Positions 46,447 through 57,075 of a DNA stretch of 64,000 nucleotides are shown piece after piece. Under the pieces are notes generated by a model. That model saw only the letters and a program-made list of their open reading frames with translations. It was not told the origin of the DNA and did not search any database. A program made the position numbers and the translations under genes. Source of the stretch: Cytophagales bacterium WSM2-2 (GTDB lineage Bacteria; Bacteroidota; Bacteroidia; Cytophagales; Cyclobacteriaceae). The stretch's first letter is position 1. Each line of letters starts with the position of its first letter. The DNA is taken from contig BNHL01000001.1 of NCBI GenBank assembly GCA_015472025.1, forward strand, positions 4,576,001 to 4,640,000, written 5' to 3'.

Positions 46447-46845
46447 ATGGCAACAGCGACATTAACAATCAAAGACGAAACTAGTGGTGGCAAAATCATC
46501 AATGAAATTAACATTTCCTTAAAACAGGAGAGTGTATCTGTTCAGGAGATTATAGAGGCGAGAGTTGAATATGAGGTTAAGGTCTACAACGATAAGTTGC
46601 CTGAATATTTTCAAGGACTCGTCCAACCAACCAACGCTGAGAAAACTTTAAATGGCTACAAAATGAGGGAGCGGAAAAAAGTAGACCCAGAAAAACAAGT
46701 TTATATCGCCCTGGATGCTTTTCAAAAAAATGCCTACTTCGTGCTTGTTGATGATAAGCAAGTAGAATCGCTTGAGCAAACGATTGTTGTCAAACCTCAG
46801 ACAGTGGTCAGCTTTGTAAAACTTACTCCACTAGTCGGGGGATAG
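46447..46845 (+). CDS. Candidate ubiquitin-like (beta-grasp) modifier ending in Gly-Gly
   Basis: 132 residues ending exactly ...VKLTPLVGG-stop. The C-terminal third (VDDKQVESLEQTIVVKP, then TVVSFVKLTPLVGG) matches the last strands and tail of MoaD/ThiS-type proteins, where the common ending is like EVAFFPPVTGG. The N-terminus shows a strand hairpin (TATLTIKD, KIINEINISL) followed by a helix (SVQEIIEARVEYEVKVY), the beta-grasp order; residues 49-90 are an insertion. With Gly-Gly already exposed no processing protease is needed. The gene ends one base before the DUF4132 gene, and an E1-like gene completes the operon. No molybdopterin or thiamin genes are near. The Ubl assignment is inferred from tail, strand pattern and context. 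Confidence 0.75.
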   Translation: MATATLTIKDETSGGKIINEINISLKQESVSVQEIIEARVEYEVKVYNDKLPEYFQGLVQPTNAEKTLNGYKMRERKKVDPEKQVYIALDAFQKNAYFVLVDDKQVESLEQTIVVKPQTVVSFVKLTPLVGG

Positions 46846-46846
46846 T

Positions 46847-49414
46847 ATGGACTTGATTAATGCTTTTAAAAAAGTTTTCTCGTCCAAAGAGGAGAGGAAA
46901 TTCTTGGACATAATTTCAGATGCTCACAATGAGTTGGAGGCTAAGGGCGGAAATTATTGGTCATTAAAACCTAACGAGTTCAAATCATACGATGTGTTGG
47001 CAGGTTTGCCTGACAAGGAAAAGGTTGGGTTTATCATTTATTGCGTTAAGGAAGTTCATGAGTACTATAAAGGAAGAACAACCTTTGGTGGAAATGATAA
47101 GGCTTGGATTGAGTCTTACATTCGGAACGCTTTTTATCAGCATCTGCTAAAAACGAAGATGCATTGGGATGCCTCAGATGTGGTAGCAATTGCTGAGACA
47201 TTTCAATCAACGAGAAGAAACGATTGGACTGGCATCACGGGATGGCCGCTCGGATTGTTTGTGAACCAGATTGAAAAAAATTTTAAAGAGCGTTTGCCTG
47301 ATGAAGTAAAGGCGGTTTTGCTAAACCTCAAGTCAGAGATTGAGAAGATAAAATCAAATGCTCAAAAGGACATCCACAAAGTGTTCGATAGGATCGAAAC
47401 GATATTATTCGAGTCAGAGCATGGAGAAAGTGTTGTCAAGCCAGTGATGTTCGGCGATGATGATGAATTTGCAACCTATGCTAATTCGATCATCAAGGAG
47501 CTGCCTGATGAAGATAGAATTCATTGGCATCAGTTGATTGCGTTTGCGCAAAAGGCGTCTGGCTCAAAGCCAAGCGCAAAATACCACGACCAGTGTCGTG
47601 AGCTATTCAAAGAGCTTGGAGTGGAGAAGTTCAAAAAACAATTAAACGATTGGTTTGACTTCATCGCGCACATGAAAGAGACCGAGCGGCAACGCACATT
47701 TGATTACGGCAATGGAAGGATTCAGAACTATACCACACATGTCTTTCTTTCAGCTCCTAATGTTGATTCAATAAAAGGTCTGGTTTGGATGTGTGCGCAT
47801 TTTTATGATTCTCGAACACTCCACGTACTAGCTTCTCTGGCGGAAAGAGCTTTCAAAAAAATTCCGGGGCAAGGGCCAGCTGCTGCCTCTATCGGGAATG
47901 CCTGCCTCTACACCTTGTTTAAATCAAAGGGTTTGGAAGGAATTGGTCATTTGTCTCGACTAAAGCTTCGCATCAAACAAAACAGCACCCAAGCGTTAAT
48001 CGACAAATATTTGTTGGAAGCCGCCAAGCTACAAGGAGTTACAGTTTCCGAAATTGAGGATCTCGCGGTCGACGATTTCGAACTTGTTGAAGGCAAGCGT
48101 GAATTTGAAATAGAAGGATATAAGTTCAAATTAAACATCAAAGGTGTCGGTGATGTTGAACTAGGGTGTTTCAAACCGGATGGGGCAGCGCAGAAATCCA
48201 TTCCCACGATAGTGAAGGATAAAGCACCTGACAAGATCAAGAAAGTTAAAGAGCTTGTCAAGAAAGTCGAGATTTCTACGACCGCTCAGCGCGATAGAAT
48301 CGACAGGATGCTCAGGAGCCAGCGAGTTATGACATGGGATTATTTCAATCAGCATTACTTTGGTCATGGCTTGATGTCATTCCTGGCAAAGAATATCATA
48401 TGGCACTTTGAAACAAATGCAGTTGGATGCGAAGCGATATGGCACAATGATGCATGGCATGAAGCAGATGATACCTCAATAAAGGTTAGTGCTGAAACGA
48501 AAGTTTCGTTGTGGCATCCGGTAAGCTCTAGCGTTGAAGAAATAAAACAGTGGCGGGAATACTTAATAGAGAACAAAATCAGTCAGCCGATTAAGCAAGC
48601 ATTTCGTGAAGTGTATATTTTAACGGACGCGGAAGTCAACACGAAGACGTACAGCAATAGAATGGCCGCGCACGTTATCAAACAACATCAGTTCAACTCT
48701 CTAGCTAAAACACGAGGCTGGAAGTACTCTTTGCTTGGTGCGTATGATGATGGGCGTGCCAATGAGGCAGCTGAACTGAATCTTGCGGAGTACGGATTGA
48801 GAGCAGAATACTGGGTGAATGAAGTTAATGCCGATGGAGCGTATAACGACACCGGAATCTGGAATTATGTAGCAACAGATCAAGTTAGGTTCGTAAATAC
48901 AGATGCCAATCAACCGATTGAATTAGTGAATGTCCCGAGAGTTCCATTTTCCGAAGTGATGCGTGATGTTGATCTTTTTGTTGGAGTTGCTAGTGTTGGA
49001 AATGATCCAACCTGGAATGACAGTGGGGGTGTTCCAGCCTACAGGGACTATTGGCAATCGTATTCATTTGGAGAGCTAACCGAGATCGCAAAAACGAGAA
49101 AGGAGACCCTTGTGCGATTGCTTCCGCGTTTAAAGATCGCTTCAGTGGCTACAATTCAAGATAAATTCCTGGTGGTAAGAGGGAAAATTAGAACTTATAA
49201 AATTCACATCGGAAGCACAAATATTTTGATGGAGCCGAATGATCAATACTTGTGCATAGTTCCAGACCGATCACAAAAACCAAAAACTGAGAATCTCTTC
49301 TTACCTTTTGAGGGAGACACTGGGCTTTCAGTGGTGCTTAGCAAGGCTTTCCTTTTAGCTGAAGATACCAAGATTACTGACTCCACAATCACTTCCCAAA
49401 TAAACCGGAAGTAA
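46847..49414 (+). CDS. DUF4132 protein, central gene of the Ubl/E1 operon
   Basis: 855 residues, no signal peptide or membrane helix. The C-terminal half carries the DUF4132 pattern: REVYILTDAEVNTKTYSNRM, FNSLAKTRGWKYSLLGAYDD, the acidic strand segments around VPFSEVMRDVDLFVG and VVRGKIRTYKIHIGSTNILM (about residues 580-830). The N-terminal 400 residues are helical and unassigned. DUF4132 occurs in MolR-like proteins of unknown biochemical role. Here it lies between a Gly-Gly protein and an E1 enzyme with gaps of 1 base and a 1-base overlap, so it may be the target, a ligase-like partner or the effector of the conjugation system. None of these is shown by a motif. Confidence 0.82.
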   Translation: MDLINAFKKVFSSKEERKFLDIISDAHNELEAKGGNYWSLKPNEFKSYDVLAGLPDKEKVGFIIYCVKEVHEYYKGRTTFGGNDKAWIESYIRNAFYQHLLKTKMHWDASDVVAIAETFQSTRRNDWTGITGWPLGLFVNQIEKNFKERLPDEVKAVLLNLKSEIEKIKSNAQKDIHKVFDRIETILFESEHGESVVKPVMFGDDDEFATYANSIIKELPDEDRIHWHQLIAFAQKASGSKPSAKYHDQCRELFKELGVEKFKKQLNDWFDFIAHMKETERQRTFDYGNGRIQNYTTHVFLSAPNVDSIKGLVWMCAHFYDSRTLHVLASLAERAFKKIPGQGPAAASIGNACLYTLFKSKGLEGIGHLSRLKLRIKQNSTQALIDKYLLEAAKLQGVTVSEIEDLAVDDFELVEGKREFEIEGYKFKLNIKGVGDVELGCFKPDGAAQKSIPTIVKDKAPDKIKKVKELVKKVEISTTAQRDRIDRMLRSQRVMTWDYFNQHYFGHGLMSFLAKNIIWHFETNAVGCEAIWHNDAWHEADDTSIKVSAETKVSLWHPVSSSVEEIKQWREYLIENKISQPIKQAFREVYILTDAEVNTKTYSNRMAAHVIKQHQFNSLAKTRGWKYSLLGAYDDGRANEAAELNLAEYGLRAEYWVNEVNADGAYNDTGIWNYVATDQVRFVNTDANQPIELVNVPRVPFSEVMRDVDLFVGVASVGNDPTWNDSGGVPAYRDYWQSYSFGELTEIAKTRKETLVRLLPRLKIASVATIQDKFLVVRGKIRTYKIHIGSTNILMEPNDQYLCIVPDRSQKPKTENLFLPFEGDTGLSVVLSKAFLLAEDTKITDSTITSQINRK

Positions 49415-50151
49415 TGGACAACAAGCGTTACATAACGCAAATAGCAGTTCCTGAAATAGGCTTCGAGGGTCAAGAAAAAATCGTCAAAGCAAAAGTGCTT
49501 GTCGTTGGGGCTGGCGGTCTCGGCTGTGCTGTGCTGAGTTATATTGTTGGAATGGGTGTTGGAACTGTGGGAATTGCGGATGACGATACAGTTCACATTA
49601 GCAATCTCCACCGGCAAATTCTCTACAATGAATCACATTTGGGTAGACTAAAAACGGAAGTGGCTTCGCAACAGCTTCAGCTTTTGAATAGCAATGTTGA
49701 CTTCAATGTAATTATTCAGCGAATAGCTTATGACAATGTGGATCAATTTTGCAGTGGTTACGATGTGGTGGTTGATTGCACTGATAATTACGAATCTAGA
49801 AAAATGCTCGATTCGTTTTGCTTTAGGACGAACACACCTCTAGTATTTGGCGCGGTACAGCAATTCGAAGGGCTCGTATCAGTGTTCAGTTACCATGGTG
49901 GCCATTCTTACTTGGATTTGTTTCCCGATGAGATTGATAGCCAAACTTTTGGTTGTGCTCAAGAGGGGGTAATGGGACATGTTGCAGGCTATGTTGGATG
50001 TCTCATGACTAACGAGATAGTGAAAATAATCATAGGATTGGATAATGTACTGTCGGGTAAAGTTCTTTCGATAAACATGAAATCTGGAACTAATAGGCTC
50101 TTAAGTTTTAGGGAGGTACAGGGTAAAATCTGTCCAGCCAATGGAGATTAG
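49414..50151 (+). CDS. E1-like adenylyltransferase (MoeB/ThiF family)
   Basis: 245 residues, a complete ThiF-fold enzyme. Nucleotide-binding GAGGLG (32-37), the DDDTVHISNLHRQIL segment with R67 as the Arg finger, DCTDN (121-125) with the Mg/ATP Asp, and C181 in GCAQEGVMG at the position of the conserved Cys of MoeB/ThiF. The zinc site is mostly lost: the usual CxxC before LF reads SYLD (165-168) and the second pair reads CPAN (240-243). It should adenylate the C-terminal Gly of a beta-grasp protein, and the only candidate nearby is the Gly-Gly protein two genes upstream. The ATG overlaps the DUF4132 stop (TAATG). Confidence 0.93.
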   Translation: MDNKRYITQIAVPEIGFEGQEKIVKAKVLVVGAGGLGCAVLSYIVGMGVGTVGIADDDTVHISNLHRQILYNESHLGRLKTEVASQQLQLLNSNVDFNVIIQRIAYDNVDQFCSGYDVVVDCTDNYESRKMLDSFCFRTNTPLVFGAVQQFEGLVSVFSYHGGHSYLDLFPDEIDSQTFGCAQEGVMGHVAGYVGCLMTNEIVKIIIGLDNVLSGKVLSINMKSGTNRLLSFREVQGKICPANGD

Positions 50152-50472: not shown

Positions 50473-52146
50473 TTGATCCCTCAACGAAGGTGGCGAAGTT
50501 CATTTTTGGCAAAACGATTTTTTCGTGAACTTCGATCCGACGTTAAATGGAACAGTCGAGGTACTTTGAAACATCCAGATCAAAATCAACATAGAATACC
50601 TCAGGTTTATTTGCGCCAATGGTCATTTAAGGATCGCGGCAATGCAGACACTGTTTGCGTCTTAAAAAAGGGAGACCCAGTTGCACACGCTAAGCATGTC
50701 AAAAATTTTACGGCCGAAAAAAATTTATTTGATACAACCGTTCATGACGAAGGTTTCGAAAGGTTTTTTGACGAAAAATGCAAGTATGTAGAAAGTAACT
50801 ACCCCAGATTGCTGTCAGCTTTAAGCACAAATACTTACGATGGACAAGCGCGAATTTATCTAACGGAGTTTATGTCAAACCTGTTTGTGCGCCAGCGTAA
50901 AACTTTTGAATTCCTAATGTCCATAATCGAGCAAAAGCATCTACGTGTGAAGTTCTTAAACGAAATTGCTATGCTTGAAAAGGACGAAGATCATTCGCTG
51001 ATCAAAGGGGTATATGAGGAAGTGGCTATCGACTCAGATCACACAGTTGAGAGTAAAGTTAGTGCTGTAATACTTCAGGCATGGAAGCATTTCAAGGAAG
51101 TGCTGAGTCGGTTTGATCACGTACTCATAAAAGCGCCTCCAGATCGAAGTTGGTTTACCTCGGACAATCCAATTATTACAGTGAACTTTGGGAAAGATGC
51201 TTGGTTTGTCGGTCCCGATGCTGAAATGTATTTTCCAATTTCAAAAGAATATCTGGTATACATGTTTTTCAACGGCCTGGGGACGAACAGTATGCTTCGT
51301 ACGATGCCACTTGATATTCCCACGGAGGTCTCCTGCGAAATATTTGACAACGTCATGCATAGTGTCATAAAAGAGAGTAAGCCCGACTATTTTATCCTGG
51401 GAGAGGACTTATGTCTTTTGAATATGGAGACAGGCGAATATCAAAAATCGTACAGGCCTGTCGACCGATCAGAACCACATGAATACCGAACCAAGGTTGC
51501 TCTTATGGATACTCCAACACCACCAAACCTCGATGACAAAAATTTAGAGAAGCTTCTAACGAAACTCGATGCAGAATTTGAGCCCATTATATTACAGGTA
51601 GAAACTCACCAAGATGCTATTGAAAATGAATGCATAGCCATCGTGGATCGAATGATGAGTGAAAATGGGGGAAAGCGAATTTTGGGCTGGCAAATTTGGC
51701 AAGGGCCTTACATAATGGAGGCGGAATTTCACGCTGTTTGGGAGACCCTCGAAGGGGTGCTTAAAGATGTCTCATTTAAAAAAGTCAAGGTGAAGGACAT
51801 AGTTTTTGTTGAAGATGAAAGATTGACATACGAAGGCAAGCAGATAAATAACGTGAGGTTAAATCTTCTTGAGATTTCCCTAGTAGACGATTTCATAGAA
51901 GCCTGCAATCAGCAATTTAGATTATTGAACAAAGGTAAGCGAGGTCTCCTTTACGGTAAGGAATTAGCGGACCATCTTACAACCGACCAACTCAACAATA
52001 TAGGTCATGTTAACCATGTTAAGTCATTAATTCTAAAGCTGCTTAACTCTGGTGGAGACAAAAATTCGCCTTGCCCTTGCAACGAGAGACGGAAGTATAA
52101 GAATTGTCATGGCGAGTTAGTGACAAAATTGAAACGGCTTGACTGA
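50473..52146 (+). CDS. DUF4238 protein with C-terminal SEC-C motif
   Basis: 557 residues from a TTG at 50473; no ATG occurs before the conserved part, and another TTG at about 50567 is also possible. The DUF4238 domain begins HRIPQVYLRQWSF and includes FFDEKCKYVESNYPRLL, LTEFMSNLFVRQRKTFE and RSWFTSDNPIITVNF (about residues 35-300). The last 20 residues are a SEC-C zinc motif, PCPCNERRKYKNCHG. Proteins of this kind occur in defence or mobile islands, usually with unknown activity. It lies between the two copies of the XRE-tail repeat, so it may have moved with that segment. Confidence 0.82.
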   Translation: MIPQRRWRSSFLAKRFFRELRSDVKWNSRGTLKHPDQNQHRIPQVYLRQWSFKDRGNADTVCVLKKGDPVAHAKHVKNFTAEKNLFDTTVHDEGFERFFDEKCKYVESNYPRLLSALSTNTYDGQARIYLTEFMSNLFVRQRKTFEFLMSIIEQKHLRVKFLNEIAMLEKDEDHSLIKGVYEEVAIDSDHTVESKVSAVILQAWKHFKEVLSRFDHVLIKAPPDRSWFTSDNPIITVNFGKDAWFVGPDAEMYFPISKEYLVYMFFNGLGTNSMLRTMPLDIPTEVSCEIFDNVMHSVIKESKPDYFILGEDLCLLNMETGEYQKSYRPVDRSEPHEYRTKVALMDTPTPPNLDDKNLEKLLTKLDAEFEPIILQVETHQDAIENECIAIVDRMMSENGGKRILGWQIWQGPYIMEAEFHAVWETLEGVLKDVSFKKVKVKDIVFVEDERLTYEGKQINNVRLNLLEISLVDDFIEACNQQFRLLNKGKRGLLYGKELADHLTTDQLNNIGHVNHVKSLILKLLNSGGDKNSPCPCNERRKYKNCHGELVTKLKRLD

Positions 52147-55438: not shown

Positions 55439-55867
55439 TCATTTTTGAGTGGGCCAAAACTTGTGGTCCTTATCAAGGAAGACTATATGGAATACGTGGT
55501 CGTCAACGTAGCCGGCAACTACTTCTTTGCTCTTGTCGGTTAAGTGCATGACCGCCCATGTTACACCTTGAATGTGCAGCGGAACTTTAAACTCTGAATT
55601 TGGCGGAAAATCCACTTTAGTGTACTGCTTAATGTATTGCTTATGAAGAGCCTCTTGCACTGAATGTTGCCCGACAAATTTCATTCTTATGAAAAGGTCA
55701 TCAAGAAGGCCCAACTCTTGCCACTGTTCGACGGATTGTCCTTCAGCGACTACATGATGGGTCATGCTAAAGACGACTTTCTTGCCTCTGGTCTTTTCGG
55801 CCTCCCTTTTTCCCTGTTCCCTTAAATACGCCGGGTCAACTCTTTCTTTTTTCCGCTTCTGACTCAT
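55439..55867 (-). CDS. 142-aa protein coupled to the AAA ATPase
   Basis: 142 residues, cytoplasmic. A basic N-terminus (SQKRKKERVDPAYLREQGKREAEK) is followed by a compact alpha/beta domain ending VDDHVFHIVFLDKDHKFWP. I cannot assign a family. Its ATG overlaps the ATPase stop (ATGA), so it is translated with the ATPase. Small partners encoded like this beside AAA_15-type ATPases are often toxins or adaptors in abortive-infection systems; that is context only. Confidence 0.7.
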   Translation of the reverse strand: MSQKRKKERVDPAYLREQGKREAEKTRGKKVVFSMTHHVVAEGQSVEQWQELGLLDDLFIRMKFVGQHSVQEALHKQYIKQYTKVDFPPNSEFKVPLHIQGVTWAVMHLTDKSKEVVAGYVDDHVFHIVFLDKDHKFWPTQK

Positions 55868-57075
55868 ACGTAAACAAGATCATTAACATTTTTAATGTCC
55901 ATCTTTTCAGATGTTCCAAATACATTGTCCAAGTACTTCTTATCGAAAGCGGAGGAGTTCCTTACAGTACTTGAGCTAAAGTCGGACATCGGATATAACT
56001 CAGACGCACCGAATTGATCACGTCGAACGAACCAAATCTGATCACGCCTGAAGAGTTTTTTGTTCAGTAGAGTGACATCGTGAGCCGAAAATACCAGTTG
56101 AGCACCTCTTTTATTTAGCTCCTGAAACAAGTGAATCAGGCCACAGGACAAGTTCGGATGAAGTTTTGAATCAAATTCATCCACAAATAAAATCCTTCCA
56201 TTCCTCAAAGTGTCATACACTGGCCCAAGCATATGGATTAGTTTTTTGGTGCCCGTAGACTCCACGGAGACATCAAATGGCACAACTCCGATTAGCAGGT
56301 CGTTCTCGTCAAACTTATTGTGGTAGGTAACTATTTCCCCATCTTTTTCATCCGCTTCAACATTGGTGACCTCCAGATATTTCAAGACCGACGCCGCCCA
56401 TTTCTTGAAATTCGTATCCGTCTTAAGCAGCTTCGCAGTGTACTTACCGTATTTTTCCTCATGCAGGCCACTGATGACATTTACATTAGAGAACCAGTCT
56501 ACTATAGTTCGGGATATCTTTTGATTATTTTGGGCTAGATGACTAATAAATAAAACATTTGCATTTACTTCACTTTTATACTTGTCGCCCTCTTCGAATG
56601 ACTCTGAATTTATTTCAAAGACATTACCCTCTGTTCTATTAAAAAGGAGGACCTCTCGTTCCTTTTTTCTATATAACCATTCCTTTTTTATCTCGGAACC
56701 TTTGACTTCAAACCCATACCGGTATACTTCCATGTCCTTAAGAAAGGAGACTTCATACATCGTGTTGTTGTTTTCATCTCTTGTGTTCAGGAAGAATGGA
56801 AGGCTTAATGTCCTCTTCCGTTCGGATTCAGGAAGCAGTGATTCTGAAAAAGAATGCTGAATGAAGTTACTCATTGAATTGATGGCATAGACGAAATTGC
56901 TTTTCCCGCCCCCGTTAGGTCCGTATATAGCTGCGGTCTTAAGCAGGTTAAAGCCTTTGTCAGTCTTGATGATATTCGCCTTTTGATGCTCTTTGAAAGA
57001 TTTGACGGCCGTCATCAAGAACCGCGTATCATTCCTGAAAGAAAGGAAATTTCTGAATTTGAATTCAATTAGCAT
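55864..57075 (-). CDS. AAA_15-type ATPase (OLD/RecF-like)
   Basis: 403 residues. The N-terminus MLIEFKFRNFLSFRNDTRF is typical of SMC/RecF-like ATPases in defence systems. Walker A is AAIYGPNGGGKSNF (G52-S59 region), the D-loop/Walker B is GRILFVDEFDSKLHPNLS, and the switch motif is VFSAHDVTLL. There is no coiled-coil long enough for an SMC, and no TOPRIM. It is the first gene of a three-gene operon with the 142-residue protein and a PD-(D/E)XK nuclease. It should sense or bind nucleic acid and use ATP to control the other two products. Confidence 0.9.
   Translation of the reverse strand: MLIEFKFRNFLSFRNDTRFLMTAVKSFKEHQKANIIKTDKGFNLLKTAAIYGPNGGGKSNFVYAINSMSNFIQHSFSESLLPESERKRTLSLPFFLNTRDENNNTMYEVSFLKDMEVYRYGFEVKGSEIKKEWLYRKKEREVLLFNRTEGNVFEINSESFEEGDKYKSEVNANVLFISHLAQNNQKISRTIVDWFSNVNVISGLHEEKYGKYTAKLLKTDTNFKKWAASVLKYLEVTNVEADEKDGEIVTYHNKFDENDLLIGVVPFDVSVESTGTKKLIHMLGPVYDTLRNGRILFVDEFDSKLHPNLSCGLIHLFQELNKRGAQLVFSAHDVTLLNKKLFRRDQIWFVRRDQFGASELYPMSDFSSSTVRNSSAFDKKYLDNVFGTSEKMDIKNVNDLVYV

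What the first reader, a model, noticed from the sequence alone, without database searches (positions are those of the whole stretch)
46447..50151. Three-gene ubiquitin-like system: Gly-Gly beta-grasp protein, DUF4132 protein and MoeB/ThiF-type E1
The 132-aa protein ends exactly in LVGG-stop, and its last 30 residues follow the MoaD/ThiS ending (VSFVKLTPLVGG). The third gene is a full E1-like adenylyltransferase. The middle gene is an 855-aa DUF4132 protein. Gaps are 1 base and a 1-base overlap, so the genes are one unit. No MoaA/E, ThiC/G, E2 or JAB protease gene is nearby, so cofactor synthesis is unlikely and the exposed Gly-Gly needs no processing. Bil and CBASS Cap2 systems use E1 enzymes, but I know of none built on DUF4132. 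The operon sits in a defence-like island. It may conjugate the small protein to DUF4132 or to phage or host targets.
Basis: partly seen in the sequence, partly recalled or inferred. Interest (0 to 1): 0.93.

Follow-up and report, generated by a model that had tools for sequence, protein, structure and literature searches.

The report
Ubiquitin-like protein with E1 and partner
A small bacterial protein predicted to fold like ubiquitin, and ending in the same exposed Gly-Gly, is encoded with a large partner protein and sometimes with its own activating enzyme; the partner has kept one cysteine wherever the Gly-Gly is kept, which points to an undescribed ubiquitin-like relay.

Summary
A (132 aa, ends LVGG), B (855 aa, DUF4132 + DUF7737) and C (245 aa, ThiF/MoeB-type E1) form one unit. 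A is predicted to be beta-grasp; its ten best fold matches are ubiquitin-like proteins or MoaD, none below E 0.001. In 80 related loci, 78 of 79 complete A genes end in L[VI]GG, B is found in 73 and C follows B in 13; six more genomes have all three. No other neighbour recurs in more than 9 loci. Five genomes with C, the window's included, have no other MoeB-type E1 and no MoaA, so molybdopterin synthesis does not explain C. New lead: B's C803 is present in 56 of 56 B from non-W loci and in 0 of 13 B whose A ends in Trp; fresh loci gave 10 of 10 and 0 of 5. On the tree this is one event. The D. radiodurans pair is drA0165-drA0166, published as DNA-damage induced. Most likely E1 activates A and B's cysteine receives it. 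Phage defence is not supported; targets are unknown.

The parts
46447..46845 (+). A: predicted ubiquitin-like (beta-grasp) protein, 132 aa, C-terminal LVGG exposed
46594..46731 (+). A residues 50-95: conserved insert (small hairpin plus helix) between the first helix and the third core strand, with two invariant positions (A88, F92)
46837..46842 (+). codons of G131-G132, invariant in 86 of 86 aligned A proteins
46847..49414 (+). B: 855-aa partner; predicted helical N-terminal half and alpha/beta C-terminal half without a PDB match
48182..48721 (+). DUF4132 domain of B (residues 446-625)
49088..49402 (+). DUF7737 domain of B (residues 748-852)
49253..49255 (+). codon of C803 (YLCIVP), the only Cys invariant in 52 aligned B; proposed acceptor of A
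49414..50151 (+). C: ThiF/MoeB-type E1 adenylyltransferase, 245 aa
49954..49956 (+). codon of E1 C181, invariant in 14 of 14 operon E1s, in the alignment column of the Cys in ThiF's RNCRTAGV stretch

Best explanation
A is a ubiquitin-like protein made with an exposed Gly-Gly. Step 1: a MoeB/ThiF-type E1 adenylates the Gly-Gly carboxylate; this is C where the operon has it, and a housekeeping MoeB elsewhere. Step 2: activated A passes to C803 in the DUF7737 domain of B as a thioester or persulfide, so B takes the place of an E2/E3-type enzyme. Step 3: from B, A goes to a protein (or gives sulfur to a small molecule), in Deinococcus under genotoxic or oxidative stress. Shown by sequence and prediction: fold, Gly-Gly, E1 residues, gene linkage, and the joint loss of Gly-Gly end and cysteine. 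Inferred: steps 1 and 2. Unknown: the target in step 3.
For: Fold: 79-sequence AlphaFold2 model (pLDDT 77, pTM 0.68) with bb-alpha-insert-bbb order and a loose tail; the ten best Foldseek hits are ubiquitin-like or MoaD, human MoaD (5mpo_A) with probability 1.00 and TM 0.62 on the target. Tail: 78 of 79 complete A genes end in L[VI]GG. E1: G35, R67, K80 and D124, which align with MoeB Gly41, Arg73, Lys86 and Asp130, and C181 are invariant in 14 of 14; operon E1s form one side of a branch (SH-aLRT 96) apart from the housekeeping ones (after discounting five rows that are the operon E1s themselves). C is the only third gene that recurs widely beside A-B: A 84, B 87, C 14 loci, next family 9. E1 supply: 26 of 26 genomes with an A-B pair and no linked C have a strong MoeB-type match in an open frame of 355-448 aa; of 12 with C, 7 have one (six in frames of 357-398 aa, G449's in 239 aa) and 5 do not (Fisher p 0.0016, not corrected for kinship). 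Cys-Gly link: Cys in 56 of 56 non-W B and 0 of 13 W-type; prediction noted beforehand and met in 10 of 10 and 5 of 5; 2 of 2 further Deinococcus. Of 38 C-terminal positions invariant in 28 Gly-Gly-type B, C803 is the only one absent from all 18 W-type B. Over the C-terminal part, D. radiodurans B is 48% identical to a W-type B and 26% to the window's, yet keeps Gly-Gly and Cys. Three of three DUF4132 proteins without an A gene in the stretch examined, E. coli YehI among them, lack DUF7737.
Against: No biochemistry. The Cys-Gly link rests on one evolutionary change. Most loci have no C: 13 of the 66 that hold at least 3.3 kb after A. A MoeB-type match is common anyway: 167 of 247 Bacteroidota genomes, and 17 of 18 W-tail genomes have an E1-family match too. 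Foldseek E-values are weak, TM on the query is 0.31-0.41 for the leading hits, and other beta-grasp proteins (staphylococcal superantigen-like) appear lower in the list. Profile comparison of A with MoaD is not significant (P 0.06). C803 lies at the end of a short predicted strand and could be structural. No deconjugating protease was seen. W-tailed A proteins stay paired with B, so pairing does not need activation. Three Gly-Gly A genes stand without B (L035, L051, L082), and one B with the Cys (L024) has no A in its 12.5 kb. In D. radiodurans, A pulled down 157 proteins with tags at either end, which is not specific evidence for conjugation.
Confidence: 0.5

Rival explanations
1. Sulfur carrier: E1 turns A into a thiocarboxylate, and B (with C803) uses the sulfur to thiolate a small molecule, tRNA or protein, as ThiS-ThiG or MoaD-MoaE do.
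For: A looks like MoaD; genomes without C carry MoeB-type open frames of 355-448 aa, long enough for the MoeB-rhodanese fusion known from elsewhere (rhodanese part inferred, not tested); E1 C181 sits in a ThiF cysteine column. A cysteine in B would also fit an acyl-persulfide.
Against: Operon E1s are 194-245 aa, too short for a rhodanese part; no sulfurtransferase-like gene recurs among the clusters printed (clusters were not annotated one by one); DNA-damage control in Deinococcus is unusual for a biosynthetic enzyme.
Confidence: 0.28
2. Non-covalent partner: A's tail simply docks into B to fold or switch it, and the E1 is a side acquisition.
For: A-B pairing is wider than the E1 and survives where A ends in Trp; G313, a W-tail genome, has no E1-family match at E 1e-20.
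Against: It does not explain the invariant terminal glycine, the E1 lineage kept in genomes without another evident client, or the joint loss of Gly-Gly end and cysteine.
Confidence: 0.15
3. Molybdopterin synthesis: A and C stand in for MoaD and MoeB.
For: The window's genome has a lone MoaE and no MoaD above cut-off; earlier authors linked DUF4132 to molybdopterin.
Against: That genome has no MoaA match; four other genomes whose only MoeB-type E1 is C have neither MoaE nor MoaA; 23 of 26 A-bearing genomes have a separate ThiS/MoaD-family gene above cut-off.
Confidence: 0.03
4. Anti-phage conjugation system like Bil or Bub (not exclusive of the relay above).
For: Defence-like genes lie downstream in the window (AbiLi-like AAA, 7e-78); Bub operons are also induced by DNA damage (passages of PMC13373217).
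Against: No E2 or JAB family in the window genes scanned; a crude JAB motif occurs in 2 of 2,467 reading frames of 91 stretches, one of them inside a B gene; neighbours elsewhere show no recurring defence family.
Confidence: 0.12

Closest known systems
MoaD/ThiS with MoeB/ThiF
   Same: Beta-grasp protein with free Gly-Gly and a single-domain E1 of the same family
   Different: A is 132 aa with a conserved insert, is not matched by the ThiS profile, and is tied to B instead of MoaE or ThiG
SAMP/UbaA and Urm1/Uba4 (recalled; MoeB residues and Uba4 mechanism from passages of PMC12355090)
   Same: Ubiquitin-like protein and MoeB-type E1 without a classical E2
   Different: Here a large partner with a candidate acceptor cysteine is encoded with the Ubl
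Bil, Bub and 6A-6E bacterial ubiquitin-like operons (passages of PMC1779556 and PMC13373217)
   Same: Operon with Ubl and E1; Bub induced by DNA damage
   Different: No E2 or JAB peptidase found; B has no match to a PDB chain or to their parts in the libraries searched
DRA0165 (SEP068184)-DRA0166 of Deinococcus radiodurans (passages of PMC8533742 and PMC9650054)
   Same: It is the same A-B pair: A ends ALAGG, B has DUF4132 and DUF7737 with FLC
   Different: Published as a stress peptide and a DUF protein; longer B with DUF5724; no E1 in the 18-kb stretch; the words ubiquitin and Gly-Gly or glycine do not occur in the two texts
MolR/YehI (DUF4132)
   Same: DUF4132 domain
   Different: No DUF7737, and no A-family match in 35 kb around yehI

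Membership tests
Ubiquitin-like (beta-grasp) proteins | Beta-grasp fold | tested here: met
   AlphaFold2 and Foldseek; consistent family but best E only 0.0036
Ubiquitin-like (beta-grasp) proteins | Exposed C-terminal Gly-Gly | tested here: met
   86 of 86 aligned
Ubiquitin-like (beta-grasp) proteins | Activation by an E1 and attachment to a target | not testable with these tools
   needs biochemistry
ThiS/MoaD family (PF02597) | Match to the Pfam profile | tested here: not met
   no ThiS match to A; hhalign P 0.06
ThiF/MoeB E1 family (PF00899) | Profile match and catalytic residues | tested here: met
   4e-66; invariant residues
Bil/Bub/6A-6E operons | Linked E2-fold protein and JAB peptidase | tested here: not met
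   none in window genes scanned; only the SEC-C tail of the downstream gene touches E2 models; elsewhere only a crude JAB motif scan and gene clustering were done
CBASS Cap2 | E1-E2 fusion protein | tested here: not met
   C is 245 aa with one E1 domain
DUF4132 (MolR-like) | DUF4132 profile | tested here: met
DUF4132 (MolR-like) | WGR domain, as reported for MolR-type proteins (passages of PMC8533742 and PMC11674859) | tested here: not met
   no WGR match in B or in six relatives
Cysteine-dependent ubiquitin transferase (E2/HECT/RBR-like) | Catalytic Cys forming a thioester with the Ubl | tested here: inconclusive
   C803 tracks the Gly-Gly, one event; chemistry untested

The most novel reading that the evidence does not exclude
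B is the founder of a new class of ubiquitin-like transferase: DUF7737 carries the acceptor cysteine, so E1, Ubl and B form a complete conjugation cascade without any E2 fold, used in a bacterial stress response and present in several phyla.
Probability: 0.33. Interest if true: 0.96.

Novelty: new variant of a known kind. Interest (0 to 1): 0.9.

Why it matters
It ties three unexplained things together: DUF4132/DUF7737 proteins (three papers in the held library), an orphan stress peptide of D. radiodurans, and E1 enzymes with no evident cofactor client. It names single residues (A G132, B C803, E1 C181) whose change would test the idea in one gel. If right, ubiquitin-like transfer has evolved a transferase outside the E2 fold.

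Tried and rejected
Tried without result: a shared operator upstream of A (best palindromes in 4 loci, three of the four within one group of Hymenobacter loci, against 2-3 in shuffles); phage records; fold of B against PDB (helical-repeat matches lead, none below E 0.001); profile-profile match of A with MoaD. Loss of a zinc CxxC as a mark of the operon E1 was dropped because the housekeeping ones lack it too. SOS neighbours: one Hymenobacter genome has UmuD-UmuC before one A-B pair and an S24-type repressor before the other, but no other locus showed UmuDC, and only one weak partial match to the repressor was found elsewhere (L048; L108 is the same contig as L025).

In one search five rows labelled trans are the operon E1s themselves. 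In one search the second line used 6 of 10 by mistake; the right count of linked E1 in the Flavobacteriaceae sample is 5 of 10 Gly-Gly loci against 0 of 19 W loci (p 0.002; the two sets are not one sample). The comparison of invariant positions used 28 Gly-Gly-type B: 21 of the 52 of alignment A6 and 7 others.
Full report
What is there. The three genes stand as described: A 46447-46845, B 46847-49414, C 49414-50151, one base between A and B and one base shared by B and C. B carries DUF4132 and DUF7737, C is a ThiF-family E1. A has no significant family match.

A is predicted to be ubiquitin-like. The model made from 79 sequences has two strands, a helix, an insert and three strands, with an uncertain tail (pLDDT 77, pTM 0.68). 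The ten best Foldseek matches are ubiquitin-like proteins or MoaD; E-values are modest (best 0.0036, none below 0.001), and other beta-grasp proteins follow lower down, but human MoaD aligns with probability 1.00. The authors of PMC9650054, who studied the Deinococcus relative, also got MoaD and SAMP1 as near structures by I-TASSER (passages). Sequence profiles do not reach MoaD.

The Gly-Gly end is conserved. A scan of the genome collection gave 179 relatives, of which the best 80 were returned. Of 79 with a complete A gene, 78 end in LVGG or LIGG; the other (L054) has a stop just before the tail. Relatives in Nonomuraea, Novosphingobium and three Deinococcus end in GG too. MAG records titled Cyanobacteria, Chloroflexota, Leptospirales and Armatimonadota are among the 80, but binning errors are possible.

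A-B is the core, C is the optional third gene. B was found in 73 of the 80 loci; the gap to A is 20 bases or less in 61 of 81 loci measured. C follows B in 13 of the 80, or 13 of the 66 with at least 3.3 kb after A, and in six more genomes, G843, G656, G853, G836, G449, G626. Clustering all neighbours gave A 84, B 87 and C 14 loci; the next family reached 9 and looks like an ABC ATPase. C comes and goes on the tree of B (8 changes, at least 5 forced), while the 14 operon C proteins lie on one side of a branch (SH-aLRT 96). So one dedicated E1 lineage seems to have been repeatedly lost or moved.

Where the E1 comes from. All 26 genomes with an A-B pair and no linked C have a MoeB-type match elsewhere (20, 6; in one of them, G878, A is broken). 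Of 12 with C, five do not: G000 (the window's), G116, G117, G836, G843; their other ThiF-family matches are weak (E 8e-43 or worse). The phylum rate of a strong match is 167 of 247 and 17 of 18 W-tail genomes have an E1-family match, so presence alone is moderate evidence, and relatedness is not corrected. In G116, G117, G836 and G843 MoaE and MoaA were not found; ThiG was tested in G000, G116 and G117 with only weak barrel matches, not in G836 or G843. G000 has a lone MoaE but no MoaA and no MoaD above cut-off. C therefore has no evident cofactor client there, and A is the obvious one. Completeness is 99% or more for G000, G836 and G843 and is not given for G116 and G117.

A natural control. 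A sister branch of A ends in Trp: GTYW, GAYW, GSYW, GRLW or GGW, with a longer B that adds DUF5724 in the two scanned. Across 19 such loci (14, 5; stretches of 7-15 kb) no C was found. One such genome, G313, has no E1-family match at E 1e-20.

The cysteine. In 52 aligned B proteins the one invariant Cys is C803. It is present in 56 of 56 B from loci that are not W-type (in L024 no A is linked, in L054 A is broken), and absent in 13 of 13 W-type B. I wrote down the prediction and fetched further loci: 10 of 10 non-W B had it (G591 repeats L053; in G626 A is broken) and 0 of 5 W-type did; D. psychrotolerans and D. ficus have Gly-Gly and Cys. Of 38 C-terminal positions invariant in 28 Gly-Gly-type B, 31 are also invariant in 18 W-type B and only C803 is absent from all 18. 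Over the C-terminal part, Deinococcus B is nearer to a W-type B (48%) than to the window's B (26%), so the Cys follows the Gly-Gly, not the family. On the tree, however, this is a single change: strong in specificity, weak in number.

Function known so far. The RDRM motif listed for drA0165 starts 82 bases before A in L021, so L021 A-B is drA0165-drA0166. PMC8533742 reports DdrO control and an IrrE-dependent rise of DRA0166 after mitomycin C; PMC9650054 reports that DRA0165 rises after radiation and H2O2, that its deletion makes cells more H2O2-resistant, and that it binds thioredoxin (passages). PMC9650054 says there is no RDRM and no relative outside Deinococcus; the first is contradicted by PMC8533742, the second. 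The words ubiquitin and Gly-Gly or glycine occur in neither text. A search for DUF4132 with ubiquitin found one paper, a Leptospira domain list, and a search for DUF5724, DUF7737 or DUF4132 found three papers, none on such a system. The held library lacks most subscription journals, and one main Bub paper was not held.

Conclusion. The best reading is an E1-Ubl-B relay with C803 of B as acceptor; sulfur transfer through the same residue is the main rival. Defence is possible but has no direct support.

Noticed in passing
window 55439-57075 (-): AAA ATPase matching AbiLi (7e-78) with a 142-aa gene overlapping it; likely a separate defence-type pair.
   Followed up: no
window 50473-52146 (+): 557-aa DUF4238 protein with a SEC-C tail; only that tail touches E2-associated PADLOC models.
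   Followed up: partly
window genome C1:2.293 Mb (L139): Second E1-like gene: ThiF domain after a weak, below cut-off JAB-like region, perhaps another ubiquitin-like system.
   Followed up: partly
window genome C1:3460292 (L167 7284-7715): Lone MoaE gene in a genome without MoaA or MoaD above cut-off.
   Followed up: partly
L025 2471-7421; L026 3069-7162: In one Hymenobacter genome UmuD-UmuC precede one A-B pair and an S24-type repressor precedes the other.
   Followed up: partly
L102, L104, L106 upstream of A: Hymenobacter loci share a TTGCTAA...TTAGCAAA-like repeat before A, seen by eye, possibly an operator.
   Followed up: no
L179 2099-7631; L180 6733-10642: G837 carries both a W-type pair and a Gly-Gly pair with an unusual 1161-aa B.
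   Followed up: no
L177, L178: A ends in AGGW, one residue past Gly-Gly, with no Cys in B; whether the Trp is removed is unknown.
   Followed up: no
L169 8050-8493: W-type locus whose B is reduced to a 147-aa remnant while A is intact.
   Followed up: no
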